From contig NZ_BLIN01000003.1 in the NCBI RefSeq assembly GCF_009811555.1, positions 248,001 to 312,000 of the forward strand: DNA of 64,000 bases, written 5' to 3'. This DNA comes from Streptomyces caniferus. GTDB taxonomy: Bacteria; Actinomycetota; Actinomycetes; Streptomycetales; Streptomycetaceae. Both the position numbers and the translations under genes were made by a program. This document shows, one piece after another, positions 52,306 to 64,000 of this stretch. Every line of letters begins with the position of its first letter. Positions within the stretch are counted from its first letter, which is position 1. Under the pieces are notes generated by a model, which was given only the letters and a program-made list of their open reading frames with translations, did not search any database and was not told the DNA's origin.

Positions 52306-53235
52306 TCAGGTGAGGGATTCCACCGCCAGCCAGGTGGCGATGGCCTGCGCAATGGGCTGGTCGGTCTCCAACTGGACGAAGCCGAACTGGCCGCCCTGGT
52401 TGCATTCGAGGAACCACCATGCCCCGTCGGGGTCCTCGGCGAAGTCAAAGGCACCATAGGCAAGTCGGGCGGTGTTCATATAGCTGCTCACCGCCCGTTC
52501 GACGGAGTCCGGCACCTCGGCAGGTTCCCAGGTGCCGTGCTGGGTGAAACGGCTGTCCACCTCTTCGGGGTCGGCCTTCTTGCGGGCGGCGAAGAGATGC
52601 TCGCCGACGCAGGTCAGTCGGATGTCGGCCTCCTTGCGGATGTGCTGCTGGAGCAGGGTCGGGCCGGCCGCGACCCCGCTGAAGTCCGCGTCCGGGCTGA
52701 TGCGCGTGGTGGGCAGCACCAGGGGCGGGTCGCCGGGGTGTTTTCCGCTGACCGATTTCACCACGAGGTCCTGGTGGACGGCGGCGAACTGCCGGGCGAC
52801 GGCCGGGAACGTGGTGATCAATGTGGGGGGTACGAGGAAGCCGCTGTGGTGGGCGATATGGAGCTGCCACGGCTTGTTGCGTGCCTGCACGGACGCCACG
52901 GGATGGTTCATCCAGCGCGCCGGGGTGCAGGCGAGCATGCCGTACAGCGCCTGTTCGGACTCGGCCGTGATCCAGGCGGACTGTTCCGGGGCGCGCGCCC
53001 CGGGGGTGCCGGGGCGGCGGACCCATACCGAGCGCAGACTGCTGAGGCTCACCATGCGTTCGCCCGCTTTGAGATATCCGTGGAAGTCGTTGCCGGCGTA
53101 CTCGGCCGACAGGGCGACTTTCCCCGGCAGGTCGGCGGGGTCGAGGCGGACGAGCGGGACCCCGAGGTCCTGCAGCGTCGACACCACGATGTCCGCCGTC
53201 AAATCTTCCTCGCAGGTGAGGACCAGGACGGTCAT
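52306..53235 (-). CDS. tgmB: ATP-grasp graspetide synthetase (TgmB, GRASP_SAV_5884-like)
   Basis: 309 residues; ATG at 53235, eight bases after the precursor stop. The N-terminal pre-ATP-grasp domain starts MTVLVLTCEEDLTADIVVSTL; later segments include WMNHPVASVQARNKPWQLHIA, the ATP-binding lysine strand DLVVKSVSGKHPG, and the C-terminal metal/ATP region GAFDFAEDPDGAWWFLECN with QGGQFGFVQ, as in ATP-grasp peptide maturases (MvdC/MvdD, TgmB). Such enzymes join Thr, Ser or Lys side chains of a precursor to Asp/Glu side chains, giving omega-ester or amide macrocycles. Its substrate is almost certainly the adjacent TgmA. Confidence 0.9.
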   Translation of the reverse strand: MTVLVLTCEEDLTADIVVSTLQDLGVPLVRLDPADLPGKVALSAEYAGNDFHGYLKAGERMVSLSSLRSVWVRRPGTPGARAPEQSAWITAESEQALYGMLACTPARWMNHPVASVQARNKPWQLHIAHHSGFLVPPTLITTFPAVARQFAAVHQDLVVKSVSGKHPGDPPLVLPTTRISPDADFSGVAAGPTLLQQHIRKEADIRLTCVGEHLFAARKKADPEEVDSRFTQHGTWEPAEVPDSVERAVSSYMNTARLAYGAFDFAEDPDGAWWFLECNQGGQFGFVQLETDQPIAQAIATWLAVESLT

Positions 53236-53243
53236 TTCGGCGC

Positions 53244-53435
53244 TCAGTCGTCGAAGTGGGTCTTGGAACCAGCGGTGGAAGCGGTGGTTCCGGTTGCCAG
53301 CAGCACCGCCCGGCTACAGGTGGCCGGGCGGCCGTCCGGGAGGACGTTGAGTTGCCGTGTGGCGTCATAGCTGTAGGGGGTGGTGGTCGGTGATTTCACC
53401 GCCGGACGGGCGTAGCTCAACGCAAACGGTCGCAT
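53244..53435 (-). CDS. tgmA: TgmA, ATP-grasp-modified RiPP precursor (graspetide)
   Basis: 63 residues; ATG at 53435 with AAGGAG six bases upstream. The leader carries the two motifs of the GRASP-target family: PFALSYARP at 3-11, and YSYDATRQLNVLPDGRPA at 21-38. The core is the C-terminal TGTTASTAGSKTHFDD (48-63), with nucleophiles Thr48, Thr50, Thr51, Ser53, Thr54, Ser57, Lys58 and Thr59, and only two acceptors, Asp62 and Asp63, so at most two cross-links. Cys40 lies between leader and core. Missing from usual gene calls because of its length. Confidence 0.9.
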   Translation of the reverse strand: MRPFALSYARPAVKSPTTTPYSYDATRQLNVLPDGRPATCSRAVLLATGTTASTAGSKTHFDD

Positions 53436-53472
53436 ACCTTCTCCTTCGAAGCCCGGTTTCTGAGCCCTTGGT

Positions 53473-53496
53473 ACGGGGCACACTTGTGGGCCCCGT
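53473..53496. promoter_or_regulatory. hairpin in the leader region of tgmA
   Basis: ACGGGG/CCCCGT flanks an inner CACA/TGTG pairing with a two-base bulge, 38-61 bases before the tgmA start. It could be an operator or an attenuator. The whole stretch 53436-53859 (424 bases) upstream of tgmA is otherwise empty of credible genes and AT-richer than the surroundings. Confidence 0.4.
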
Positions 53497-53859
53497 TTGA
53501 TGACTCTGCACGGAAGACGCGACAATCTGGTCAGTAAGTTGCCTCTTTTGCTCGGTTCCGGCGATTCTCTTGACGGAAAAGCGACGATCGCGTAATCGCC
53601 GGCCTTGCCAAGTACCGCCGTCGAGGCATGCCCTGACGGCCCGTTCGGGCAGGGGCGCACACGGATTCCCCCACCCGGAAGAAGACTTCCCCGTGCGGGA
53701 CTTGGGCACGCGGAAGAGCCCCGGCACGGCGATCCGGCGGCGGAACCGCGCGCCGGATCGTGCGCGCCTCTCCCTACGCCTGTGCCCTGTGGACGACTGA
53801 CGGGACGTGTGCGGAGAGGGGTGCCGTGCGGGGCTGCTGTTGCGCGCTTGCGCGGGCCG

Positions 53860-54573
53860 CTACCCGGGACTCTTCCCGTCGGCCGGGAGCCGCAACGGTG
53901 TGCCGTCCAGAATGGCGGCGACCAGTTCCATGGTCAGCCGGTGCCACTGGCGGGCGCCGCGGAGCATGGTGTGCCCGCCGCGCGGCATGGCGACGGCATG
54001 GGCCCGGGCCCCCGACTGCCGGGCGCGGTCGGCGAAGAGCCGGGAGCCCTCGGCGTCGGTGATCCGGTCGCGCTCGTCGTGCAGCAGCACGACGGTCCGG
54101 TCGCGCAGATGGGAGACGGGTTCGTCGGGCGGGCACCACGGGGCGAGCGCGACGATGCCGCTCACCGCCGGATGCCCACCCGTGTGGAGGGCGGCCCGGC
54201 CGCCCATGGAGTGGCCCACGAGCACCACCGGGACGTCGGCGGCGAGCCCGGCCAGCTCGTCGAGCGCCCCGCGGGCGTCCCGGGCGGCGTCCGCCTGTGC
54301 CCCGTTCCATCCGCGGCAGCGATAGCGCACGGAGGCCAGCAGCAGATCCCGCCCGCGCGGCGCCCGGGAGATCGCGGATCCGAAGGGACGCATGCGCAGC
54401 GCGGGGAGGTTGAGCCGCGGGGGCGGCGTGCGGCCGTCGGCCCGGCCCCCGTGCATCAGCAGCACCGCGGCCCGGGGCGTGTGCGGAGCGCGGTGCACGA
54501 CCAGCGGACGGTGCGGGGCACCGCGTCCGTCGTCGTCGGCGGTTTCCGTGGGCCGGGCCGGGCCTGTCGTCAT
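53860..54573 (-). CDS. alpha/beta hydrolase, last gene of the SigK lipid operon
   Basis: 237 residues; ATG at 54573 overlaps the DUF1295 stop (ATGA). Catalytic residues are visible: Ser in VLVGHSMGGRAAL, Asp in LLHDERDRITD and His in MPRGGHTML, with oxyanion HGG early (VLLMHGGRADG). It resembles small dienelactone-hydrolase/lysophospholipase-type enzymes. Tight coupling to the fatty-acid modifying genes suggests an ester or thioester substrate from the same pathway, which is inference. Confidence 0.85.
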   Translation of the reverse strand: MTTGPARPTETADDDGRGAPHRPLVVHRAPHTPRAAVLLMHGGRADGRTPPPRLNLPALRMRPFGSAISRAPRGRDLLLASVRYRCRGWNGAQADAARDARGALDELAGLAADVPVVLVGHSMGGRAALHTGGHPAVSGIVALAPWCPPDEPVSHLRDRTVVLLHDERDRITDAEGSRLFADRARQSGARAHAVAMPRGGHTMLRGARQWHRLTMELVAAILDGTPLRLPADGKSPG

Positions 54574-55397
54574 GGGCGGGTGTCCTCCGGGTGGGGGCGT
54601 CGACGCGGTGGCAGAGGAAGGAAACCGCTGGTGCGGGCGGTGTAGGCGGCGTATCCGGGGCGGTCGGCCAGGTGGTTCTCCAGGAGTCGCTTACCGCTGC
54701 CGTAGGTGAGCAGGTACGACATCACCAGCGGCGAGACCACCGTGACCGCGGCGGCCTGCGCGGTGCCGCAGGCCAGCAGGAACAGACCCCACCATACGAG
54801 GAAGTCACCGAAGTAGTTGGGGTGCCGGGTCCAGCCCCACAGACCGCGGTCCATCACCCGGCCCCGGTTGTCCGGGTCGGCCTTGAACCGGGCGAGCTGG
54901 ACGTCACCGACGCTCTCGACGACGAAGCCGACCGCCCACAACAGCCCGCCGGCAACGGCACTCGCCCCCAGCGGCACCGCCACGTACGCAGCCACCTGTA
55001 CCGGGAGCGAGATCAGCCACACCAGCCCGCCCTGCAACAGGTACACCGTGCGCAGGGCGTAGGCGTCGCGGCTGCCGGGGGCCCTGGCCAGCAGCCGCTC
55101 ATAGCGCGGATCCTCGCCGTGCCCACGCCCGCGCCGGGCGATGTGGACGGACAGCCGCAGCCCCCACACCGCCGTGGCGACCGTGACCAGGATTCGCCGG
55201 CCGTCGTCCCCGTAACCGGCGGACAGGACATACGTCGTCAGCGCCACCGCCGTGAACGCCGCCCCCCAGGCGATGTCCACCAGCCGGTGCAGCCCCTTGG
55301 CCCGGGCGACGGCGAACGTGGTGAGCATGACGGCGAACGCGGCAGCGGCCGCCGCGGCGAGGTTGACGGCGAGGGCCGACCAGGGAATTCCGGTCAT
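54570..55397 (-). CDS. DUF1295 integral membrane reductase-like protein
   Basis: 275 residues; ATG overlaps the preceding CFA-like gene (ATGA, 55394-55397). About seven membrane helices, then the steroid-5-alpha-reductase/isoprenylcysteine-methyltransferase-like C-terminal motif: RGLWGWTRHPNYFGDFLVWWGLFLLA and LLENHLADRPGYAAYTARTSGFLPLPPRR. DUF1295 proteins are presumed NADPH reductases of membrane lipids. The homologous gene in the mycobacterial SigK locus (Rv0446c) has the same position after ufaA1. Confidence 0.87.
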   Translation of the reverse strand: MTGIPWSALAVNLAAAAAAAFAVMLTTFAVARAKGLHRLVDIAWGAAFTAVALTTYVLSAGYGDDGRRILVTVATAVWGLRLSVHIARRGRGHGEDPRYERLLARAPGSRDAYALRTVYLLQGGLVWLISLPVQVAAYVAVPLGASAVAGGLLWAVGFVVESVGDVQLARFKADPDNRGRVMDRGLWGWTRHPNYFGDFLVWWGLFLLACGTAQAAAVTVVSPLVMSYLLTYGSGKRLLENHLADRPGYAAYTARTSGFLPLPPRRRPHPEDTRP

Positions 55398-56689
55398 GTA
55401 CGGACGTCTCCCGCATACCAGTCGTACGGCGTGCCCGGCATGCCGGCTTCCCCTTCCGGTGTGGGACGAACGGCGAGGATCTGGTCGACGCCCATGCGGC
55501 GCTCGGTGAACGCAAGGCCCGCCCCGGCCAGGTAGAGCCGCCACACCCGGGCGGTCGGTTCCCCCGCCAGCGCCACGAACTCCTTCCAGCGGGACTCCAG
55601 CGTGTGGTGCCAGGCGGCGATGGTCCGTGCGTAGTGTTCGCGCAGCGACTCCACGGAGCGCACCTCCAGTCCGCCGGCCTCCAGCAGTCCCACGGTCTCG
55701 CCCAGCGGGCGCATATGCATATCGGGGGCGATGTAGGACTCGATGAACGCCCCGCCTCCGGGCGCGGCGGCGCCACGGGACATCTGCTGGATCAGCACCC
55801 GTCCCCCGGGGCGCACCAGGGCATGCAGCCGGGCGGCGAAGCCCGGGTACTCGGCGTCGCCCACGTGCTCGCCCATCTCGATCGCGCACACCGCGTCGTA
55901 GCCGTCCGTCGTGAGGTAGCGGTAGTGCCGGAGTTCGACGTCGACCTGATCGCTCAGCCCCAGCTCCCGCACCCGGGCGGTCACGAAGGCGTGCTGCTCC
56001 CGCGAGAGCGTGACCGCGGTGACCTGGGCGTGGTACTCACGCGCCGCGTGGAGCGTGAGGCTGCCCCAGCCGCAGCCGATGTCCAGGAGACGGGCGCCGG
56101 GGCGAAGGCCCAGTTTGCGGCAGACCAGCTCCAGTTTGTCGCGCTGGGCGTCGGCCGGTCCGTAGGACGGGTCGGCGGGGCGCTGCCAGTAGCCGCAGGA
56201 GTAGGCCATGGTCTCGTCGAGCAGCAGCGCGTACCAGTCGTTGGACAGGTCGTAGTGGTGGCTGATCGCGGCCCGGTCGCGGGCGGTGCTGTGCAGCGTG
56301 CCGCGCAGCCGGGCCCGCGGGGCGCCGGGGGCGGGCGGGCGCGGGCCCACGGCGCCGAGCCGCAGTGCGGTCAGGGCCATCCGGGCCAGTTGGCGCGGAC
56401 GGGGAGAGCCGGGAGCCGGACCGTGTGCGCGTACCGAGCGCCACACCCTGCTCAGACAGTCGGCGAGGTCGCCCTCGACGTCCAGATCGCCGGCGATGTA
56501 GGCCTGTGCCAGGCCGAGTTCACCGGGCTGCCACAGCAGACGGCGCAGCGCCCGGGGCGAGCGCAGGACCACGACCGGCGCGGCCTTCGGCCCGGCCTCG
56601 CTGCCGTCCCAGGCGCGCAGCCGCACCGGCACATTCCCCGCGAAGTGCCCCGCGAGCAGTGCGGCGAGACGGGGTGCGACCCGCGTCAT
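55394..56689 (-). CDS. cyclopropane-fatty-acid synthase-like methyltransferase (second paralogue)
   Basis: 431 residues; ATG overlaps the first CFA-like gene (ATGA, 56686-56689). The N-terminal lipid-binding domain is followed by ISHHYDLSNDWYALLLDETMAYSCGYW and SAM motif LLDIGCGWGSLTLHAA. The conserved glutamate lies in CAIEMGEHVGD. Where classical CFA synthases and the paralogue read YIFPGG, this protein has ESYIAPDMHM, so its active site is distinct. It may methylate without ring closure, as in 10-methyl fatty acid or furan fatty acid pathways; this is inference. Confidence 0.88.
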   Translation of the reverse strand: MTRVAPRLAALLAGHFAGNVPVRLRAWDGSEAGPKAAPVVVLRSPRALRRLLWQPGELGLAQAYIAGDLDVEGDLADCLSRVWRSVRAHGPAPGSPRPRQLARMALTALRLGAVGPRPPAPGAPRARLRGTLHSTARDRAAISHHYDLSNDWYALLLDETMAYSCGYWQRPADPSYGPADAQRDKLELVCRKLGLRPGARLLDIGCGWGSLTLHAAREYHAQVTAVTLSREQHAFVTARVRELGLSDQVDVELRHYRYLTTDGYDAVCAIEMGEHVGDAEYPGFAARLHALVRPGGRVLIQQMSRGAAAPGGGAFIESYIAPDMHMRPLGETVGLLEAGGLEVRSVESLREHYARTIAAWHHTLESRWKEFVALAGEPTARVWRLYLAGAGLAFTERRMGVDQILAVRPTPEGEAGMPGTPYDWYAGDVRT

Positions 56690-58002
56690 CGAAGGCCCCC
56701 GTCCTGCGCGGTGGCGGCCTTGGTCAGGAGCAGCTGGCGTACGTCCAGGTAGCCGGCGCGGAATCCGGCCTCGCTGTAGGCGAGATAGAACTCCCACATC
56801 CGCCGGAACACCGCGTCGAAGCCCAACGTGCCGACCGTGGTGGGCTGCTGGGTGAAGCGCTCGCGCCACAGCCGCAGCGTTTCGGCGTAGTGGCCGCCGA
56901 ATCCGTCGTTCTCCTGTACGTGGAGACCGGCGCGTGCGGCGCACTCCTCGATGGCCGGGACGGAGGGGATGAGGCCGCCGGGGAAGATGTACTTGTGGAT
57001 CCAGGTGTACGTGGTGCGGGTGGCGAGCATCCGGTCGTGCGGCATGGTGATCGCCTGGAGCGCGATCCGCCCGCCGGGCACCACCAGACGTTCGAGGGTC
57101 TCGAAGTAGACGGGCCAGTAGTCCTCGCCGACGGCCTCGATCATCTCCACGCTCACCACGGCGTCGTGGACCCCGGTCACCTGCCGGTAGTCGCACAGCT
57201 CGACCGAGACCCGGTCCGCGTAACCGGCCTGCGCCAGACGCGCCATGGCCAGCTCGCGCTGCTCCTGGGAGAGGGTCACGGAGACCACACGGGCGCCGCG
57301 GGCGGCGGCGCGCAGGGCCAGCTCTCCCCAGCCGGTGCCGATCTCCAGCAGGCGCGTGCCCTCGCCGACGCCGGCCAGGTCCAGCAGCCGGTCGATCTTG
57401 CGGTGCTGGGCGTCGGCCAGGTCGCTCCATGCGGCGGGGCGTTGGGGGAAGAGGGCCGAGGAGTACGTCATGGTCCGGTCCAGGAAGAGCGCGAACAGGT
57501 CGTTGGACAGGTCGTAGTGCCGGTGGATGTTCTCCCGTGCGCCCTCCAGGGTGTTGCGCTGTGCGCTCGGCCTGCGGTGCGCCCAGGCTCCGCGCAAGCG
57601 CTGCAGGGGGCGGGGGACCAGCGCGGTGAGGTGGGAGGCGAGGACGGTCAGCGCACCGACCAGCTCGTCCGTGTCCCACTCCCCCGCCATGTAGGACTCG
57701 CCGAAGCCGATCAGCCCGTCGGCGCCGATCCGGCGGAAGAAGGCGTCCGGGTCGTGTACCCGCAGCAGGGGGCCCTCGGCGCCCGTGACGGGTGCGTCGC
57801 CGAGCGCGATCCGCAACGGGAGGTCCGCGAGGGCCCGTTGGACGATCAGCCGGGTCACGGCGGTACGGCCGGCCGAGCCGCGCGGGATGCGCGCCACATC
57901 CGGCCACCTGGCCTCGTCCACCGGCTCCCGGGCCGTGGTGGGTGCGGCGGCCGGGGTGGAGGCGGTACCGGCTTCGGTGCGGTCCGAGACGGAAGTCTTC
58001 AC
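56686..58002 (-). CDS. cyclopropane-fatty-acid synthase-like methyltransferase (UfaA1-like)
   Basis: 438 residues; GTG at 58002 overlaps the DUF1365 stop (GTGA). The catalytic core includes IHRHYDLSNDLFALFLDRTMTYSSALF, SAM motif LLEIGTGWGELALRAA, bicarbonate/catalytic Glu in VVSVEMIEAVGEDY, and the typical TWIHKYIFPGGLIPS loop. It transfers the SAM methyl to the double bond of a phospholipid acyl chain. Mycobacterial SigK clusters have one gene of this kind (ufaA1); here there are two in tandem. Confidence 0.9.
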   Translation of the reverse strand: MKTSVSDRTEAGTASTPAAAPTTAREPVDEARWPDVARIPRGSAGRTAVTRLIVQRALADLPLRIALGDAPVTGAEGPLLRVHDPDAFFRRIGADGLIGFGESYMAGEWDTDELVGALTVLASHLTALVPRPLQRLRGAWAHRRPSAQRNTLEGARENIHRHYDLSNDLFALFLDRTMTYSSALFPQRPAAWSDLADAQHRKIDRLLDLAGVGEGTRLLEIGTGWGELALRAAARGARVVSVTLSQEQRELAMARLAQAGYADRVSVELCDYRQVTGVHDAVVSVEMIEAVGEDYWPVYFETLERLVVPGGRIALQAITMPHDRMLATRTTYTWIHKYIFPGGLIPSVPAIEECAARAGLHVQENDGFGGHYAETLRLWRERFTQQPTTVGTLGFDAVFRRMWEFYLAYSEAGFRAGYLDVRQLLLTKAATAQDGGLR

Positions 58003-58772
58003 TGCATACCTTCCTGGATACGGTGGCGGGGGCGGGGCTGGACGGGCAGCCCGCGCAGGAACAGGGCGATGCCGTGGCGGCGGATCCCGGCCGTGACCGC
58101 GGCCGTGGACCAGGGGTGGCGCAGCACCGTGGCCAGCAGGTGCCGGGCGGTCGCGGGCCGACGGGTGCCGCGCACGGTCGCGGTGAACGGCCTGGTGTCC
58201 TGGCGCCGCAGCTGTACGGTCAGATCGAGCCGGCCGGCCGGCTCGGGCAGACGCATCCGGTAGGCGCCGTCGACCGGGAAGAACGGCGAGACGTAGAAGT
58301 CCTTGGCGACCTCCGCCCGGCCCTGCTCGTCGGTGTGCAGCAGATAGCAGTGGCGCTCGCCGTAGGTGTTGTGCACCTCGGCCACGACGCAGACGGGCGC
58401 ACCGCTCCGGTCGTGGCACCAGTACAGGGTCAGCGGGTTGAAGACGTGGCCCAGGACCCGGGCGTTGGCGAGCATCAGCACCCGCCCGCCGTCCAGCCGC
58501 ACCCCACGGCTCGTCAGGAACCGTTCCAGTCCGGCCCGGATGGTCGGTGCGGTGCCGGCGAAGTGGTCCCGGGGGTCGAACCGGGCCAGCGGGCGCAGCG
58601 CGAGCGGGAGCCGCGGCGGCCGGTCGAGGTCGACCAGCCACAGGTAGGTGCGGTGGCGCAGGGAGTGGCGCACCGGGGCCGTGCGGGCGTGGGAGACGAG
58701 GCACTCGTAGAGGGCGGGTGTGCGGACGTCGGAGGCGGGGACGGCGGCCGGGGCGGTCGTGCGGGGTGTCAC
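57999..58772 (-). CDS. DUF1365 family protein
   Basis: 257 residues; GTG at 58772 overlaps the amine oxidase stop (GTGA). Conserved DUF1365 features are LYECLVSHARTAPVRHSLRHRTYLWLVDLD near the N-terminus, NARVLGHVFNPLTLYWCHD, VHNTYGERHCYLL and KDFYVSPFFPVDGAYRMRL. Its biochemical role is unsettled; it always accompanies the FAD amine oxidase and CFA-type enzymes, so it probably acts on the acyl chain of the same lipid. Corresponds to Rv0448c of the mycobacterial locus. Confidence 0.9.
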   Translation of the reverse strand: MTPRTTAPAAVPASDVRTPALYECLVSHARTAPVRHSLRHRTYLWLVDLDRPPRLPLALRPLARFDPRDHFAGTAPTIRAGLERFLTSRGVRLDGGRVLMLANARVLGHVFNPLTLYWCHDRSGAPVCVVAEVHNTYGERHCYLLHTDEQGRAEVAKDFYVSPFFPVDGAYRMRLPEPAGRLDLTVQLRRQDTRPFTATVRGTRRPATARHLLATVLRHPWSTAAVTAGIRRHGIALFLRGLPVQPRPRHRIQEGMQ

Positions 58773-60034
58773 CAGCGCACCCCCAGGGACGCGGCGGCCT
58801 GGACGCCGGAGCGGCAGCCGTCCTCGTGGAAGCCCCAGCCGTGGTAGGCGCCGGCGAAGGCGGTGACCGCCGTGTCGAGTTGCGGCAGGCTCTGCTGGGC
58901 GGCGACCGACTCCGGTGTGTAGAGGGGGTGTTCGTAGACCATGCGCGCCAGGACCCGGTCGGTGGCGACCCGGTCGGTGGCGTTCAGGGTGACGAGGTAG
59001 TCCTCCGGGGTGTCCAGCCGCTGCAGGCGGTTCATGTCGTAGGTGACCTGCACCTTGTCCGCGGGGGTGGTGCAGGAGGCCATCAGGTAGTTCCACGAGG
59101 CCCGGGCCCCGCGGGCGCGGGGCAGCAGCGAGGTGTCGCCGTGGAGCAGGGTGGTGTTGCGCGAGTAGGAGAACGCGCCCAGGACCCGCCGTTCGTCGTC
59201 GGTGGGGTCGGCGAGCATCCGCAGGGCCTGGTCGGGGTGGACGGCCACCACCACGGCGTCGTAGGTGCGGTCCGTACCGTCCTCGGCGACGATCCGGGCC
59301 CGGCCCCGCCCGCGGTGCACCGCGCGCACCGGGGTGCCGGTGCGGACCGCCGTGAGCTGCTTGGCGACCCGGCCGACGTACTCCACCGAGCCGCCGGTCA
59401 CGGTCTTCCACTGCGGGGAGCCGCTGACGGACAGCAGCCCGTGGTGTTCGAGGAAGCGGAAGAGATAGACGGCCGGGTACTGCATGGCGGTCGTGGGGGC
59501 GCAGGACCAGACCGCGGAGACCAGCGGCGTCACGAAGTGGGTGACGAAATACCGCGAGAAGCCGCAATCGCCGAGGAATCCTCCGAGGGTCAGGGTGTCC
59601 CCGCGCTCGGCGGCGAGCGCGGTGCGCGCCGCGCGGTGGAAGGCCCGGATCTCGGTCAGCATCCGCAGATAGCGCCCCCACAGGGCGCTGCGCGGCTGGG
59701 CGAACAGCCCGGCAGGACCGCGGGCTCCGGCGTACTCCAGGCCGCAGCCCTCGCACCGTACGGACATGCTCATCTCGGAGTCCTGCGTGGCCACCCCGAG
59801 TTCGTGGAAGAGCCGTAGCAGCAGGGGGTAGGTGCGTTCGTTGTGGACGATGAAACCGGTGTCGACGCGTACCACCCGGCCGTCTCCGGAGGTCGTGTCG
59901 TGGGTGTGGGCGTGCCCGCCGAGACGGTCGTCCGCCTCGTACAGCGACACCTCGCAGCCTCCTTGCTGCAGCACATACGCGGCGGTGAGTCCCGCCACCC
60001 CGCCGCCCACCACAGCTATCCGCCGACGCTCCAC
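58769..60034 (-). CDS. FAD-dependent amine oxidase-like protein, first gene of the lipid operon
   Basis: 421 residues; GTG at 60034 with GAGGAGG eight bases upstream. The dinucleotide motif is IAVVGGGVAGLTAAYVLQQGG (6-26) with EADDRLGGHAHT following; the C-terminus has the AYHGWGFHEDGCRSGVQAA FAD block. Homologues (Rv0449c, and the flavoproteins beside CFA genes in Rhodobacter) are predicted fatty-acid desaturase/dehydrogenase-like enzymes. It heads the 6.2-kb coupled operon under a SigK-type promoter. Confidence 0.9.
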   Translation of the reverse strand: MERRRIAVVGGGVAGLTAAYVLQQGGCEVSLYEADDRLGGHAHTHDTTSGDGRVVRVDTGFIVHNERTYPLLLRLFHELGVATQDSEMSMSVRCEGCGLEYAGARGPAGLFAQPRSALWGRYLRMLTEIRAFHRAARTALAAERGDTLTLGGFLGDCGFSRYFVTHFVTPLVSAVWSCAPTTAMQYPAVYLFRFLEHHGLLSVSGSPQWKTVTGGSVEYVGRVAKQLTAVRTGTPVRAVHRGRGRARIVAEDGTDRTYDAVVVAVHPDQALRMLADPTDDERRVLGAFSYSRNTTLLHGDTSLLPRARGARASWNYLMASCTTPADKVQVTYDMNRLQRLDTPEDYLVTLNATDRVATDRVLARMVYEHPLYTPESVAAQQSLPQLDTAVTAFAGAYHGWGFHEDGCRSGVQAAASLGVRW

Positions 60035-60096: not shown

Positions 60097-60125
60097 GATT
60101 CGGTGCCGGGGGCGGGGCGGATTGG
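60097..60125 (-). promoter_or_regulatory. SigK-type promoter of the lipid operon
   Basis: On the minus strand CCAATC (60125-60120), 16 bases, CCGAATC (60103-60097). Transcription should begin about 60090, leaving a 5'-UTR of roughly 55 bases before the GTG at 60034. The sequence fits the mycobacterial SigK consensus CCATCC-N16/17-CCGAAT and is identical in both boxes and spacing to the promoter of sigK at 61681-61709. Confidence 0.8.
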
Positions 60126-60220
60126 TCTCGATGTGAGGCCCTGGTGTTCGGACCGGTCGCGATGGGCCGGAGTGCCCCGGCGCGCGGGCCCCGGCGGTCC
60201 CATCAGGGCGCGCCGACGGG

Positions 60221-60255
60221 ACCGGCGGCCGGCCATGGGAGGGCCGGCCGCCGGT
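60221..60255 (-). terminator. perfect hairpin terminator after rskA
   Basis: A perfect 14-base stem (60221-60234 with 60242-60255) and 7-base loop lies 63 bases after the rskA stop and upstream of the next operon's promoter, so the sigK-rskA and lipid operons are separate units. Confidence 0.75.
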
Positions 60256-60317
60256 GTCATCCGTCGTTTCCTGAGGTCACACGCCCCTTGCCGGGGTCGC
60301 CTGTTGCTTCCTGGGGA

Positions 60318-61064
60318 TCAGACCCGCAGGAGACCCAGCGGCGGGCTGGTGGGACTGCTGGAGCCGCCCGGGGGTTCGGCCGTGACGCCGACCCCGTCCG
60401 CGCCCTGGGGGCCGCCGGTCAGCAGCATGGTGCCGGAGGAGCGGCCGGGCTGGACGAGCCCGGCGGGGACCATGGTGCCGTTGCGGCTGTACCAGAGTTC
60501 GTACACCCGCTGACTCGGCAGGGCCGGCAGCCCGTGGTACAGGAACGCGGCCTGCCCCCTCCGCTTGGAGGCCACCACGGTCCCGCTGCCCCCGCCCTTG
60601 AAGGCCGTGGTGTGGAAGGTGGCGTCCGGCGCGGCCATCAGGGCACTGACCGCGGCCGCCTGCTCCTCGGCGCGGACGGTACGGTCGCGCTGCTGGTCGG
60701 CGTCGTGCCGGGCGTTGACGGCCAGCCCGCCGGCGACCGCGGCGATGACCAGACAGGCGGCCGCCGCGAGGTAGGGCAGGCGGTGGGGCGCTCGCCTGCG
60801 CAGCGGGACCACCGTGGCCTCGCGCTGTATCGGCGGCAGTTGCCGGACCTCGGGCAGGGCCGCCATCACGCGGATGCGGAGGTCCGCCGGGGGCACCTCG
60901 GCGACGGCCAGGGCGAGCCGGGCCGCGGTCTCCTGCAACTCGCGTACTTCCTGGGTGCACGCCTCGCACTGGGCGAGGTGGCGGGAGAACTCCGCCGCCT
61001 CGTGCTCGGACAGCGCGCCCAGGGCGTAGGCACCGGTGAGTGTGTGCAGATCTACGGTGTTCAT
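60318..61064 (-). CDS. rskA: RskA-type anti-sigma factor
   Basis: 248 residues; ATG overlaps the sigK stop (ATGA, 61061-61064). The N-terminal sigma-binding domain contains the zinc-binding anti-sigma motif (HEAAEFSRHLAQCEACTQEV: H-x3-C-x2-C). One membrane helix (LPYLAAAACLVIAAVAGGLAV, about 97-117) precedes an extracytoplasmic RskA domain (AAPDATFHTTAFKGGG, GLPALPSQRVYELWYSRNGTMV, GVTAEPPGGSSSPTSPPLG). It holds SigK at the membrane until proteolysis or reduction releases it. Confidence 0.9.
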   Translation of the reverse strand: MNTVDLHTLTGAYALGALSEHEAAEFSRHLAQCEACTQEVRELQETAARLALAVAEVPPADLRIRVMAALPEVRQLPPIQREATVVPLRRRAPHRLPYLAAAACLVIAAVAGGLAVNARHDADQQRDRTVRAEEQAAAVSALMAAPDATFHTTAFKGGGSGTVVASKRRGQAAFLYHGLPALPSQRVYELWYSRNGTMVPAGLVQPGRSSGTMLLTGGPQGADGVGVTAEPPGGSSSPTSPPLGLLRV

Positions 61065-61648
61065 GCCGACACCCCCAAGCAGTCGCGCAGCCGGATCAGA
61101 CCGTCGCGCAGCCGTGTCTTGACCGTGCCCAGCGCCGTGCCCAGCAGGTCGGCGGTCTCCCGGTAGGTGTACCCGCGGTAGTAGGCGAGCGTCACCGACT
61201 CCCGTTGCAGATCGGTCAGCTGTCCCAGACAGCGGCGCACCTGCTCGCGCTCCAGACGCCGTTCGACCTGCTCGCTGACCTCGTCGAAGGCCGCGGTGTA
61301 GGCGTGCAGCCCGGCCCGGTGGTCGCGGTCGGCCGCCGCCTGGGCCGAGCGCACCCGGTCCACCGCGCGCCGGTGGGTCAGGGTCATGATCCAGGCCATG
61401 GCACTGCCCTGCCGCGCGTCGTACCGGGCCGCGGACCGCCACACCTCGATCAGCACCTCCTGTGCCACCTCCTCGGACTGGGCCGGATCCCGCACCACCC
61501 GGCGCACCAGGCCCAGTACGGAACCCGCCACCGCTGTGTAGAGACTCTCGAACGCGTGCTGGTCGCCGCGGGAGACGCGGTCGAGCAGTGTTTCCAGGGC
61601 ACCGGTATGCGGCGCTGAGGATCGGTCGCCGCGGGCTGCGACGGGCAT
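61061..61648 (-). CDS. sigK: ECF sigma factor, SigK type (ECF19)
   Basis: 195 residues; ATG at 61648 is chosen since GGAGG lies five bases upstream (a GTG at 61654 would overlap that site). Region 2: GDQHAFESLYTAVAGSVLGLVRRVVRDPAQSEEVAQEVLIEVWRSAARYD, with -10-contacting SAMAWIMTLTHRRAVDRVRS. Region 4: LTDLQRESVTLAYYRGYTYRETADLLGTALGTVKTRLRDGL. It is followed by RskA and next to the DUF1365/CFA gene set, as in mycobacteria. Its own promoter and the lipid operon promoter share the same boxes. Confidence 0.92.
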   Translation of the reverse strand: MPVAARGDRSSAPHTGALETLLDRVSRGDQHAFESLYTAVAGSVLGLVRRVVRDPAQSEEVAQEVLIEVWRSAARYDARQGSAMAWIMTLTHRRAVDRVRSAQAAADRDHRAGLHAYTAAFDEVSEQVERRLEREQVRRCLGQLTDLQRESVTLAYYRGYTYRETADLLGTALGTVKTRLRDGLIRLRDCLGVSA

Positions 61649-61663
61649 GGACACCTCCGGACT

Positions 61664-61676
61664 GTGACAAGGTCAC
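61664..61676. promoter_or_regulatory. GTGAC-AAG-GTCAC dyad over the sigK transcription start
   Basis: A perfect 5+3+5 inverted repeat (extended by ACT/AGT with one insertion) covers the start predicted from the adjacent SigK promoter, so a bound protein would block or modulate it. The regulator is unknown. Confidence 0.5.
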
Positions 61677-61680
61677 CAGT

Positions 61681-61709
61681 GATTCGGCGCCGGGCGACAC
61701 CTGGATTGG
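61681..61709 (-). promoter_or_regulatory. SigK-type autoregulatory promoter of sigK-rskA
   Basis: On the minus strand CCAATC (61709-61704), 16 bases, CCGAATC (61687-61681), the same elements as before the lipid operon; predicted start about 61674, 26 bases before the sigK ATG. The 290-base region to crtY (61655-61944) contains no ORF. No copy of these boxes faces crtY. Confidence 0.8.
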
Positions 61710-61944: not shown

Positions 61945-63135
61945 GTGCGGGACGCGGATGTCGTGATCGTCGGCGCGGGAGCGGCCGGCCTGTCGCTCGC
62001 CCACCGGCTGTGCGAACCGGCGACCGGCGGCCGGGAGCCGAGAGTGCTGCTCGTCGACGCACCCGTCGGGCCGCTCACGCCCCGGGAACGGACCTGGTGC
62101 TACTGGGAGGCGCCCGACGGCGCGTTCGACTCCGCGCTGACCGCGTCATGGGAACGGCTGCGGGTGCACGGCCCCGACGGGACGGCGACGGAGGGCCGCC
62201 CCGTGCCCTTGCGGTACAAGATGCTGCGCTCGCGCGACTTCGAGGCGCTCGTCGGCGCCCGGCTCGCCGGCCGGAGCACCGTCGTCCGGACCGGCGCGAC
62301 GGTGGAGTCCGTGCGGGACGTCGCCGGGGGCGCGGAGGTACGGGGGCGCGACGGGGCGGGGCGGCCGGTGGCCTTCCGGGCGCGCTGGGCCTTCGACTCC
62401 CGTCCGGGCGCCCGGCTCCCGCCCGCCCGCACCACCCTCCAGCAGCACTTCCGGGGCTGGTTCGTCCGCACCCGGCGGCCGTCGTTCGATCCCACGACCG
62501 CGGACCTGATGGACTTCCGCACCCCGCAGCCCGCCCATGGCCTGTCCTTCGGGTACGTGCTGCCGCTGAGCGAGCACACCGCGCTCGTGGAGTACACCGA
62601 GTTCTCCCGCCGGATCCTCGCTACCGCGGCCTACGAGCGGGCGTTGCGCGAGTACGCCGCGCGCGTGCTGCGGCTGGACGCGTTCCGGGTGACCGCGGTC
62701 GAGCAGGGCGCGATCCCGATGACCGACGGCCGGTTCCCGCGGCGGACGGGCCGTTCGGTGTTCCGCATCGGGACCGCGGGCGGCGCCACCCGTGCGTCGA
62801 CCGGCTACACCTTCGCCGCCGTCCAACGGCAGTCCGCACGCATCGCGGCCGCCCTCCTGGCGGGCCGGCCCCCGCTCCCCCCGCCCGCCCACACGGCCTG
62901 GCACCGGGCGATGGACGCCGTGCTGCTGCGCGCGCTGGACAGCGGCCGGGTGGACGGCGCCGAGTTCTTCACCGGTCTGTTCCGCACGGTGCCGATGGAG
63001 CGGCTGCTGCGGTTCCTCGACGGCCGCTCCCGCCTGTGGGAGGACCTCAGCATCGGCCTGCGCACCCCGGTGCTGCCCATGCTCCGCACCGCCGTCGAGC
63101 TTCCGCTGCTGCCGCGTCGGGCCACCGTGCGGTGA
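61945..63135 (+). CDS. crtY: lycopene beta-cyclase
   Basis: 396 residues; GTG at 61945 with GGGAGG upstream. FAD-binding RDADVVIVGAGAAGLSLAHRL at the N-terminus; TWCYWE (about 53-58), the typical CrtY/CrtL signature LSFGYVLPLSEHTALVEYTEFS, and the late GTAGGATRASTGYTFAAVQRQS define the family. It converts the psi-ends of lycopene to beta-rings, giving beta-carotene. The upstream carotenoid genes (crtE, crtB, crtI) are not in this window. It is divergent from sigK-rskA. Confidence 0.92.
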   Translation: MRDADVVIVGAGAAGLSLAHRLCEPATGGREPRVLLVDAPVGPLTPRERTWCYWEAPDGAFDSALTASWERLRVHGPDGTATEGRPVPLRYKMLRSRDFEALVGARLAGRSTVVRTGATVESVRDVAGGAEVRGRDGAGRPVAFRARWAFDSRPGARLPPARTTLQQHFRGWFVRTRRPSFDPTTADLMDFRTPQPAHGLSFGYVLPLSEHTALVEYTEFSRRILATAAYERALREYAARVLRLDAFRVTAVEQGAIPMTDGRFPRRTGRSVFRIGTAGGATRASTGYTFAAVQRQSARIAAALLAGRPPLPPPAHTAWHRAMDAVLLRALDSGRVDGAEFFTGLFRTVPMERLLRFLDGRSRLWEDLSIGLRTPVLPMLRTAVELPLLPRRATVR

Positions 63136-63173
63136 ACCCGCCATCCGTACGCCCCCGGACCGGAGGAGACCCC

Positions 63174-63233
63174 GTGACACCGCTGCCCGAGAACGTCCCG
63201 CCCACCGCGTGCGCCCCGCGGGAGCGCGCGTGA
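63174..63233 (+). CDS. 19-codon mini-ORF between crtY and crtU, possible crtT relic
   Basis: GTG with an excellent GGAGGAG site six bases upstream opens 19 codons (VTPLPENVPPTACAPRERA). The stop overlaps the crtU GTG (GTGA, 63230-63233), the same coupling used between full genes nearby. In other Streptomyces crtT, encoding a methyltransferase-like protein, lies between crtY and crtU. This may be the remains of its two ends after an in-frame deletion or a leader peptide controlling crtU translation. Confidence 0.5.
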   Translation: MTPLPENVPPTACAPRERA

Positions 63234-64000
63234 CCTCCCCCGGGCGCGCGCGGAGCGGGGCCGCGCGGCACGGACGCGACCGCCGGGCGCAACGGCTGCC
63301 GGGGCCGCCGGGGCGGGATCGGGCAGCGGCCGACGGGCCCGCTGTGGCGGTGGTCGGCGGCGGTATCGCGGGCCTCTCGGCCGCGACCGCGCTGGCCGAG
63401 CGGGGCGTGCGGGTGACGTTGTACGAACGGGGAGGGGAGCTGGGCGGCCGGCTGGCGGGCTGGCCGGTGCGGCTCGCCGACGGGTCGACGGCGACCATGA
63501 GCCGTGGGTTCCATGCGTTCTTTCCGCAGTACTACAACCTGCGGGGGCTGCTGCGCCGGGTTGACCCGGGGCTGGACGTGCTCAGGCGGCTGCCCGACTA
63601 TCCGCTGCACCACCGTGCGGGCGCGCGGGACAGTTTCGCGCGGGTGCCACGGACACCGCCGTGGAGCGCGCTGGGATTCGTGGCGCTCAGTCCGACGTTC
63701 ACCTGGCGGGACCTGGTGCGGATGCGGCCCGGTGCGGCCCTGCCGCTGCTCGACGTACGGGTGCCGCAGGTCTATGAGCGTCTGGACGGCATCAGCGCCC
63801 ATGACTTCCTCTCCCGCATCCGCTTCCCCGAGGCCGCGCGGCACCTCGCGTTCGAGGTGTTCTCCCGGAGTTTCTTCGCGGACCCGCGGGAACTGTCGGC
63901 CGCCGAGCTGGTGTTGATGTTCCACATCTACTTCCTCGGCTCCAGCGAGGGGCTGCTCTTCGATGTGCCCGCCGAGCCCTTTCCGCAGGCGTTGTGGCAC
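63230..64000 (+). CDS. crtU: CrtU-type carotenoid FAD desaturase/methyltransferase (isorenieratene synthase), 5' part
   Basis: 257 codons to the window edge without a stop; GTG at 63230 with GGAG five bases upstream. After a basic disordered 38-residue extension: VAVVGGGIAGLSAATALAERGVRVTLYERGGELGGR (FAD), then MSRGFHAFFPQYYNLRGLLRRVD, the signature of CrtU and its relatives, followed by LSPTFTWRDL and the FHIYFLGSSEGLLF region. CrtU converts beta-rings to phi-aromatic rings, giving isorenieratene from beta-carotene. The C-terminal half lies outside the window. Confidence 0.88.
   Translation, partial: MTSPGRARSGAARHGRDRRAQRLPGPPGRDRAAADGPAVAVVGGGIAGLSAATALAERGVRVTLYERGGELGGRLAGWPVRLADGSTATMSRGFHAFFPQYYNLRGLLRRVDPGLDVLRRLPDYPLHHRAGARDSFARVPRTPPWSALGFVALSPTFTWRDLVRMRPGAALPLLDVRVPQVYERLDGISAHDFLSRIRFPEAARHLAFEVFSRSFFADPRELSAAELVLMFHIYFLGSSEGLLFDVPAEPFPQALWH

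What the first reader, a model, noticed from the sequence alone, without database searches (positions are those of the whole stretch)
60097..61709. Two identical SigK-type promoters define a small lipid-modification regulon
Seen: minus-strand CCAATC-N16-CCGAATC occurs before the amine oxidase operon (60125-60097) and before sigK-rskA (61709-61681), with the same spacing. Known: the mycobacterial SigK consensus is CCATCC-N16/17-CCGAAT, and the gene set amine oxidase, DUF1365, CFA-type, DUF1295, sigK, rskA is the M. tuberculosis Rv0449c-Rv0444c block. Inference: SigK autoregulates and drives a 6.2-kb fully coupled operon in this Streptomyces.
Basis: partly seen in the sequence, partly recalled or inferred. 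Interest (0 to 1): 0.75.

Follow-up and report, generated by a model that had tools for sequence, protein, structure and literature searches.

The report
SigK stress regulon of streptomycetes
Two matching DNA switches in this soil bacterium belong to a conserved stress circuit, and its genes resemble a set that distant bacteria use against light damage, which suggests a testable idea of what turns the circuit on.

Summary
In detail: CCAATC-N16-CCGAATC occurs twice in the 9.15 Mb genome, at the stated places. Comparison marks it as a SigK-type promoter. Within 300 bp, with at most 2 of 13 mismatches, it precedes 77 of 79 sigK, 36 of 39 amine-oxidase and 36 of 39 molybdopterin-oxidoreductase genes; controls: rskA 0 of 79, DUF1365 0 of 38, DUF1295 0 of 39. 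In 24 of 24 oxidoreductase genes with an exact site, a start codon lies 7-8 nt after CCGAAT, as in leaderless transcription.

"Two promoters, small lipid regulon" is incomplete: two more exact sites precede an MPT70-like fasciclin and the molybdopterin oxidoreductase, and a one-mismatch site a secreted protein.

The lipid enzymes resemble UfaD, UfaO (DUF1365) and UfaM, the furan-fatty-acid pathway of the Rhodobacter singlet-oxygen regulon (PMC7380195). One of seven alphaproteobacterial loci opened, Mesorhizobium, holds nearly the whole set beside ECF/ChrR genes. I infer an actinobacterial membrane photo-oxidative-stress regulon. Odds: regulon about 0.93; furan product about 0.5; singlet-oxygen or light signal about 0.4, inferred only.

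The parts
61681..61709 (-). SigK-type promoter of sigK-rskA (CCAATCC-N15-CCGAATC); predicted start about 61674
   Evidence: exact pattern; equivalent site with at most 2 mismatches upstream of 77 of 79 sigK homologues; start inferred from the spacing
61061..61654 (-). ECF sigma factor, SigK type (an ATG at 61648 has the better ribosome-binding site, read by eye)
   Evidence: Sigma70_r2 and r4_2; NCBIfam SigK NF007228 280 bits, cut-off 226; best PDB match SigK 4nqw, E 3e-44, both conserved cysteines aligned
60318..61064 (-). RskA-type anti-sigma factor
   Evidence: RskA_C, RskA_N and zf-HC2; only RskA_C gene found in the genome; 4-nt overlap with sigK
60097..60125 (-). SigK-type promoter of the UfaD-like operon; predicted start about 60090
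   Evidence: exact pattern; equivalent site with at most 2 mismatches upstream of 36 of 39 homologues
58769..60034 (-). FAD amine-oxidase-family protein, UfaD-like (fatty acyl desaturase by analogy)
   Evidence: PF01593; 40-45% identical to the FAD proteins next to DUF1365 in five proteobacterial loci, four of them with ECF sigma and ChrR genes nearby
57999..58772 (-). DUF1365 protein, UfaO-like
   Evidence: PF07103 241 bits; UfaO contains DUF1365 (PMC7380195)
56686..58002 (-). CFA-type methyltransferase 1, UfaM-like
   Evidence: PF02353; 41-42% to the CFA gene next to DUF1365 in Rhizobium tropici and Mesorhizobium, 28-29% to their other CFA gene
55394..56689 (-). CFA-type methyltransferase 2 (role open; no clear partner among the proteobacterial CFA genes)
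   Evidence: PF02353; 25-33% to the five proteobacterial CFA proteins compared
54570..55397 (-). DUF1295 membrane reductase-like protein
   Evidence: PF06966 228 bits
53860..54573 (-). alpha/beta hydrolase, last gene of the operon
   Evidence: Hydrolase_4; a 52% identical homologue has its own exact site in one relative (L145)

Best explanation
The two sites are promoters of an autoregulated ECF sigma/anti-sigma pair (SigK-RskA). RskA holds SigK at the membrane; a stress signal releases it; SigK with RNA polymerase then reads CCAATCC-N15-CCGAAT at four exact places in this genome and probably at a fifth, raising (1) sigK-rskA, (2) a coupled six-gene membrane-lipid operon, (3) an MPT70/83-type fasciclin lipoprotein, (4) a molybdopterin oxidoreductase of the sulfite oxidase superfamily with a hydrophobic N-terminus, and (5) a secreted protein of unknown family. 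The lipid operon most likely makes methylated furan fatty acids: a CFA-type enzyme methylates an unsaturated chain (UfaM step), the FAD protein adds a second double bond (UfaD step), the DUF1365 protein inserts oxygen (UfaO step). The set most likely protects the envelope from singlet oxygen and lipid peroxidation. Shown by comparison: promoter, its conservation, target genes, homology. Inferred: every catalytic step, the furan product, the signal. That the Mo enzyme repairs oxidised methionine is a guess.
For: Four exact sites in 9.15 Mb, two at each of two gene groups; a one-mismatch site before a secreted protein whose relatives have exact sites in other genomes. In the best 80 of 530 or more sigK loci the pair CCAATC/CCGAAT occurs 68 times at spacing 16, twice at 17, once at 6 and never at the other spacings from 4 to 30; 66 of 68 lie within 700 bp upstream of sigK (26), Mo enzyme (24), amine oxidase (8), fasciclin (6) or CFA1 (2). 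At most 2 mismatches: 77/79, 36/39, 36/39 against controls rskA 0/79, DUF1295 0/39, DUF1365 0/38, CFA1 1/40. Start codon 7-8 nt after CCGAAT in 24/24. Across 200 family genomes the motif is in 91 of 142 with RskA_C and 6 of 58 without (p 9e-13). RskA_C is in 95 of 97 genomes with DUF1365 and 47 of 103 without (p 3e-18). All 7 alphaproteobacterial DUF1365 loci opened have FAD protein, ECF sigma and ChrR-type anti-sigma within about 5 kb; Mesorhizobium also has CFA, fasciclin, MsrP, DUF1295. The R. sphaeroides RpoE regulon holds UfaD, UfaO, a CFA gene, photolyase and fasciclin (PMC7074977, PMC7380195). Light raises ufaM 25-33-fold in Pseudomonas mendocina (PMC9758184).
Against: No expression or lipid data exist for this organism. 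The R. sphaeroides Ufa sequences themselves were not available. Only 1 of the 7 alphaproteobacterial stretches holds fasciclin and Mo enzyme too, two (Phyllobacterium, Aminobacter) show no CFA gene, and the hydrolases of the two groups do not match. The Mo enzyme scores higher with sulfite dehydrogenase models than with MsrP (104 against 38 bits, all below cut-off). R. capsulatus, whose RpoE is the more SigK-like, has no homologue of UfaD, UfaO or the fasciclin (PMC7074977). In M. kansasii light raises the MPT70/83 homologues only 3- to 6-fold, not dipZ, and the sigK locus is not among the light-induced loci described in the passages seen (PMC9861118). 47 of 142 RskA_C genomes lack DUF1365; 24 of 80 DUF1365 genes are not within 20 kb of a listed RskA_C. 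Two of three actinobacterial plasmid operons show no sigma gene in the stretch opened. Mycobacterial UfaA1 is reported to make tuberculostearic acid (recalled).
Confidence: 0.57

Rival explanations
1. An ordinary mycobacterial-type SigK regulon: the operon makes a methyl-branched or cyclopropane membrane fatty acid and the trigger is thiol/redox stress sensed through the SigK cysteines; furan chemistry and light play no part.
Against: It leaves the DUF1365 protein unexplained, a family whose characterised members in PMC7380195 are UfaO enzymes, and does not explain why ECF/ChrR loci of Alphaproteobacteria carry FAD protein and DUF1365 (7 of 7 opened) and in one case nearly the whole set.
Confidence: 0.31
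2. The sites are real promoters but are read by another ECF sigma factor of the genome with the same specificity; the neighbouring SigK has another role.
For: A second RskA-linked system in many streptomycetes has the same motif ahead of DUF4331 genes, and a zinc-finger anti-sigma has it too, so the motif is not specific to one sigma factor.
Against: One RskA_C gene found in the window's genome and a site ahead of this sigK, conserved in 77 of 79 homologues.
Confidence: 0.06
3. The matches are chance.
For: None for the exact pattern; a pattern with 2 mismatches would be at chance level in the window.
Against: Expected 0.01 in the window; 2 in 9.15 Mb against 0 for the reversed pattern; strict spacing and conservation.
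Confidence: 0.01

Closest known systems
Mycobacterial SigK-RskA regulon (sigK locus with MPT70/MPT83)
   Same: SigK-family sigma, RskA anti-sigma, amine oxidase/DUF1365/CFA/DUF1295 set (mycobacterial block recalled), fasciclin target (MPT70 match E 9e-32), likely autoregulation.
   Different: Two CFA genes plus a hydrolase; sigK-rskA has its own promoter, whereas M. tuberculosis autoregulates through the Rv0449c promoter (PMC7509140); a molybdopterin oxidoreductase in the regulon; -35 box CCAATCC.
sigma-E/ChrR (ECF11) singlet-oxygen regulon of Rhodobacter and other Alphaproteobacteria
   Same: Effector genes: UfaD, UfaO, CFA-type gene, fasciclin; in Mesorhizobium also DUF1295, a second CFA, MsrP and a hydrolase by annotation.
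   Different: Sigma factors 27-36% identical in three compared; anti-sigma is RskA, not cupin ChrR (TIGR02451 22.7 bits, cut-off 124.5); different promoter (sigma-E consensus TGATC-N18-CGTAT as used in PMC5241685).
Furan-fatty-acid pathway UfaM-UfaD-UfaO (PMC7380195)
   Same: Three homologous enzymes in the order D-O-M, as the gene numbers RPA2571-2569 of R. palustris imply.
   Different: No product known here; extra CFA, DUF1295 and hydrolase.
mpt83-sigK-rskA cassette (Veyrier 2008, seen only as cited in PMC7509140)
   Same: Fasciclin with a SigK site and a sigK-rskA pair; in several of the 80 loci fasciclin and Mo-enzyme genes lie near sigK.
   Different: In the window's genome fasciclin and Mo enzyme lie on another contig.

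Membership tests
SigK-RskA sigma/anti-sigma pair | Sigma factor over the curated SigK model | tested here: met
   NF007228 280.2 bits, cut-off 226
SigK-RskA sigma/anti-sigma pair | Overlapping downstream anti-sigma with RskA_C | tested here: met
   PF10099 98.4 bits, cut-off 29.4; 4-nt overlap
SigK-RskA sigma/anti-sigma pair | Two conserved cysteines of SigK (133/183 in M. tuberculosis) | tested here: met
   both aligned with cysteines of 4nqw; numbering from PMC7509140
SigK-RskA sigma/anti-sigma pair | RskA inhibits SigK; SigK transcribes its own gene | not testable with these tools
   site upstream of 77 of 79 sigK genes, no transcript data
Mycobacterial SigK regulon | Fasciclin (MPT70/83-like) target with a SigK-type promoter | tested here: met
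   L013 fasciclin (lipobox read by eye), exact site about 270 nt upstream, MPT70 1nyo E 9e-32
Mycobacterial SigK regulon | Promoter CCATCC-N16/17-CCGAAT (recalled consensus) | tested here: inconclusive
   -10 identical; -35 is CCAATCC here; CCCATCC-N15-CCGAAT precedes the operon on a Rhodococcus and a Streptomyces plasmid; the consensus paper was not held
Furan-fatty-acid pathway | DUF1365 protein (UfaO) | tested here: met
   PF07103; UfaO contains DUF1365 (PMC7380195)
Furan-fatty-acid pathway | UfaD and UfaM orthology to the characterised proteins | tested here: inconclusive
Furan-fatty-acid pathway | Furan fatty acid in the lipids | not testable with these tools
   needs GC-MS
ECF11 sigma-E/ChrR singlet-oxygen system | ChrR-type anti-sigma with cupin domain | tested here: not met
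   no cupin hit; TIGR02451 22.7 bits, cut-off 124.5
ECF11 sigma-E/ChrR singlet-oxygen system | Shared effector gene set | tested here: met
   UfaD/UfaO-like pair in 7 of 7 alphaproteobacterial loci opened, fuller set in 1 of 7; R. sphaeroides table in PMC7074977; R. capsulatus lacks it

The most novel reading that the evidence does not exclude
The SigK-RskA regulon of actinobacteria, whose signal is recorded as unknown (PMC7509140), is the actinobacterial counterpart of the alphaproteobacterial singlet-oxygen regulon: one effector module (furan-fatty-acid synthesis, fasciclin, envelope Mo enzyme, DUF1295) has been wired to two different sigma/anti-sigma groups, and in other lines to MerR-type light regulators. 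The signal would be singlet oxygen or light-driven lipid peroxidation, and MPT70/83-type fasciclins would be photo-oxidative envelope proteins.
Probability: 0.38. Interest if true: 0.82.

Novelty: new variant of a known kind. Interest (0 to 1): 0.62.

Why it matters
The signal of SigK-RskA is recorded as unknown (PMC7509140) and the stimuli acting on its fasciclin antigens as obscure (PMC9861118). Finding much of this gene set beside the ECF/ChrR genes of Alphaproteobacteria turns an open question into a simple test in harmless soil bacteria: light plus a dye, then lipids and transcripts. It would also make streptomycetes predicted producers of furan fatty acids and give likely substrates to DUF1365 and an amine-oxidase family now named only by domain.

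Tried and rejected
Light control through the carotenoid genes: lycopene cyclase lies divergently beside sigK, but no motif points at it and a lycopene cyclase probe (E 1e-5) found none in the 80 sigK loci; rejected as a conserved link.

'The motif marks one regulon in all streptomycetes': rejected. Of 91 genome-wide sites opened (31, 60), 40 precede window-type genes (sigK 13, Mo enzyme 12, amine oxidase 11, fasciclin 3, hydrolase 1) and 13 a zinc-finger anti-sigma. Of the 38 left unassigned by the scripts I read, by eye, 16 as DUF4331 genes (Pfam run on one), 6 as that anti-sigma and 1 (L184) as the secreted protein family. From one is a spore photoproduct lyase and one ferritin-like, and 3 look like that secreted protein (no Pfam family; one read from a shifted frame). 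The remaining 10 have no convincing target. The 31 lie in other genera of the family, in the loci one search returned; the 60 were my choice, in listing order, all from the window's genus, out of about 120 listed sites without a locus; the list itself was cut.

Weaker sites in the own genome: the relaxed scan gave 10 matches, reversed control 2, and the one-mismatch scan 6, control 2. Besides the four exact sites these are 8 listed matches at 7 places; none lies by a homologue of the known targets; one precedes a secreted protein homologous to that of L105, so I count it as a probable fifth promoter. The rest I leave as chance.

Counting notes: a first Mo-enzyme probe was in the wrong frame; its hits were dropped and redone. 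In one search, genes whose match began after residue 40 or whose upstream stretch ran off the locus were dropped, and only spacing 15 after CCAATCC was scanned. In one search the most upstream in-frame start after the site was taken. The random windows (1.8% with at most 2 mismatches) include real sites. RskA_C searches scored at most 19 first-look candidates a genome, so absences are less sure. Genome labels for searches were copied by hand; the RskA match list was cut, and 17 of 97 DUF1365 genomes had no listed RskA coordinate. Of 86 plasmid records with a DUF1365 match I opened 11, chosen by me.
Full report
1. The observation. Shuffles expect 0.01 in the window and 0 of 100 gave two. In the whole genome of 9,147,309 bases CCAATC-N15-18-CCGAATC has exactly these 2 matches; the reversed control has none. 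The likeness extends to CCAATCC and GGC(A/G)CCGAATC. With two mismatches chance gives about one match in the window.

2. The genes. Minus strand, each overlapping the next by 4 nt within its group: ECF sigma 61654-61061 and RskA-type anti-sigma 61064-60318; then amine-oxidase-family FAD protein 60034-58769, DUF1365 58772-57999, CFA 58002-56686, CFA 56689-55394, DUF1295 55397-54570, alpha/beta hydrolase 54573-53860. The sigma factor passes NCBIfam's SigK model (280 bits, cut-off 226); the best solved relative is SigK of 4nqw, both cysteines aligned. One RskA_C gene was found in the genome.

3. The regulon is larger. The relaxed genome scan (10 matches, reversed control 2) holds two more CCAATCC-N15-CCGAAT sites 1.5 kb apart on another contig (L013:10110-10137 and 11652-11679). 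One lies 7 nt before the ATG of a molybdopterin oxidoreductase (PF00174; hydrophobic N-terminus by eye). The other is about 270 nt upstream of a fasciclin protein (PF02469, lipobox by eye) that matches MPT70 at E 9e-32; MPT70 is expressed under the mycobacterial SigK (PMC7509140, passages). Between that site and the fasciclin gene lies a 47-residue stretch with 21 identities to the start of the Mo enzyme, preceded by similar promoter DNA (no significance test): probably an old tandem copy, decayed, whose promoter now serves the fasciclin. A one-mismatch site, CCCATCC-N15-CCGAAT, precedes a secreted, C-terminally anchored protein (L103:586-1479, anchor read by eye) homologous to the one that has an exact site in L105 (alignment score 320); this is a probable fifth promoter.

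Over 1,485,620 bases CCAATC and CCGAAT pair 68 times at spacing 16, twice at 17, once at 6, 0 at every other spacing from 4 to 30; 66 of the 68 lie within 700 bp upstream of sigK (26), the Mo enzyme (24), the amine oxidase (8), the fasciclin (6) or CFA1 (2); one of the other two lies at the end of its locus, the other precedes a ferritin-like gene. With up to 2 mismatches in 13 within 300 bp: sigK 77 of 79, amine oxidase 36 of 39, Mo enzyme 36 of 39, fasciclin 4 of 34 (where the Mo-enzyme gene lies just ahead on the same strand the fasciclin may share its promoter, an inference); controls in the same loci rskA 0 of 79, DUF1295 0 of 39, DUF1365 0 of 38, CFA1 1 of 40; random windows 1.8%, real sites included. 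In all 24 Mo-enzyme genes with an exact site an in-frame GTG lies 7 (23) or 8 (1) nt after CCGAAT. That fits CCGAAT as the -10 element and the start codon as transcription start. Relatives are not independent, so these are counts, not probabilities.

5. Co-occurrence. In 200 genomes of the family the exact motif occurs in 97, the reversed pattern once. RskA_C occurs in 142. Motif in 91 of 142 with and 6 of 58 without RskA_C, Fisher p 9e-13. DUF1365 occurs in 97; RskA_C in 95 of these and in 47 of the other 103, p 3e-18. Of 80 DUF1365 genomes with a listed RskA coordinate 56 have the two within 20 kb, median 3.6 kb among those. The p-values ignore shared ancestry. Many streptomycetes have the same motif ahead of a secreted DUF4331 protein, divergent from an RskA_C gene 1 to 1.5 kb away (for example G138 and G082), and ahead of a zinc-finger anti-sigma. 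The motif therefore belongs to a group of sigma factors.

6. What the module is. PMC7380195 (abstract and passages) shows UfaM, UfaD (NAD/FAD-binding, phytoene-desaturase-like) and UfaO (DUF1365) making methylated furan fatty acids in R. sphaeroides; the gene numbers in R. palustris imply the order UfaD-UfaO-UfaM, as in the window. PMC7074977 (table and passage) lists in the R. sphaeroides RpoE regulon UfaD, UfaO, a CFA gene, a photolyase and a fasciclin, and says that R. capsulatus RpoE is closer to M. tuberculosis SigK than to R. sphaeroides RpoE; but R. capsulatus has no homologue of UfaD, UfaO or the fasciclin. Of 86 plasmid records with a DUF1365 match I opened 11. All 7 alphaproteobacterial ones have FAD protein, DUF1365, an ECF sigma and a ChrR anti-sigma (six annotated, one with the ChrR cupin by Pfam) within about 5 kb, next to each other in 5. 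A CFA gene follows DUF1365 in four (Rhizobium, Azospirillum B510, Ensifer, Mesorhizobium); only Mesorhizobium terrae also has fasciclin and MsrP/MsrQ, with DUF1295, a second CFA, a hydrolase and a cryptochrome/photolyase. Window against Mesorhizobium: FAD 44%, DUF1365 32.5%, CFA1 41%, fasciclin 41%, DUF1295 31%, sigma 35.5%, Mo enzyme to MsrP 30% over 158 residues, E 3e-9; the hydrolases do not match and the second CFA genes are not each other's best. The Mo enzyme scores higher with SorA (104 bits) than with MsrP (38 bits), all below their cut-offs. The one gammaproteobacterial record has a MerR regulator without a detected B12 domain and a photolyase. Of three actinobacterial records, Streptomyces NBC_00069 has sigK and anti-sigma divergent from the operon; Streptomyces NBC_00158 and Rhodococcus have no sigma gene in the stretch, but both have CCCATCC-N15-CCGAAT ahead of the operon, and NBC_00158 has beside it a MerR regulator with a B12-binding domain (PF02607 over cut-off, PF02310 below), as in LitR/CarH light sensors (resemblance recalled).

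7. Light in the literature. Light raises ufaM and phrB 25- to 33-fold in P. mendocina (PMC9758184, passages); blue light acts through ChrR/sigma-E and MerR in V. cholerae (PMC5241685, passages); RskA falls under UV in a soil actinobacterium (PMC8965627, passages). In M. kansasii light raises the MPT83 and MPT70 homologues 6- and 3-fold, much less than carotenoid and photolyase genes, does not change dipZ, and the text seen does not list the sigK locus among light-induced loci (PMC9861118, passages).

8. Reading. The simplest account is one envelope photo-oxidative-defence module, wired in Alphaproteobacteria to ECF/ChrR and in Actinobacteria to SigK/RskA. It would work like the singlet-oxygen regulon but is not a member of the ECF11-ChrR family (no cupin; ChrR model far below cut-off). 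Function and signal are inferences; the 47 RskA_C genomes without DUF1365 show that the lipid operon is separable.

9. Novelty. A SigK site ahead of the mpt83-sigK-rskA cassette was known in several genera (PMC7509140, citing a paper I could not open). In searches of the held library no listing joined SigK to furan fatty acids: two papers held both terms, PMC7074977, where furan appears only in the reference list, and PMC9029812, on human cerebrospinal fluid. Papers outside that library may do so.

Noticed in passing
61950-64000 and L014:463-3793: Carotenoid genes (lycopene cyclase, then an amine-oxidase-family desaturase-like protein) diverge from sigK; no lycopene cyclase was found in the 80 sigK loci.
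   Followed up: partly
L013:11650-11500: Decayed 5' end of a second molybdopterin oxidoreductase gene with its SigK-type promoter, upstream of the fasciclin gene.
   Followed up: yes
L103:586-1528: Secreted protein (its L105 homologue has no Pfam family) with a one-mismatch SigK-type site upstream, in the window's own genome.
   Followed up: partly
52306-53660: ATP-grasp protein (MvdD pre-ATP-grasp domain) preceded by a short ORF that resembles an ATP-grasp-modified RiPP precursor (MRPFALSYARP...; label recalled).
   Followed up: no
L136, L140, L148 and 13 more of L134-L193: Second system with the same motif: a secreted DUF4331 protein near an RskA_C gene, plus a separate zinc-finger anti-sigma with the site about 107 nt upstream.
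   Followed up: partly
L130, L106: Single relatives have the motif ahead of a spore photoproduct lyase and of a ferritin-like protein.
   Followed up: partly
L201:15499-16530: MerR regulator with a B12-binding domain next to the UfaD-like operon on a Streptomyces plasmid: a possible light sensor.
   Followed up: partly
61664-61676: GTGAC-CTT-GTCAC inverted repeat between the sigK -10 element and the ribosome-binding site, over the predicted start.
   Followed up: no
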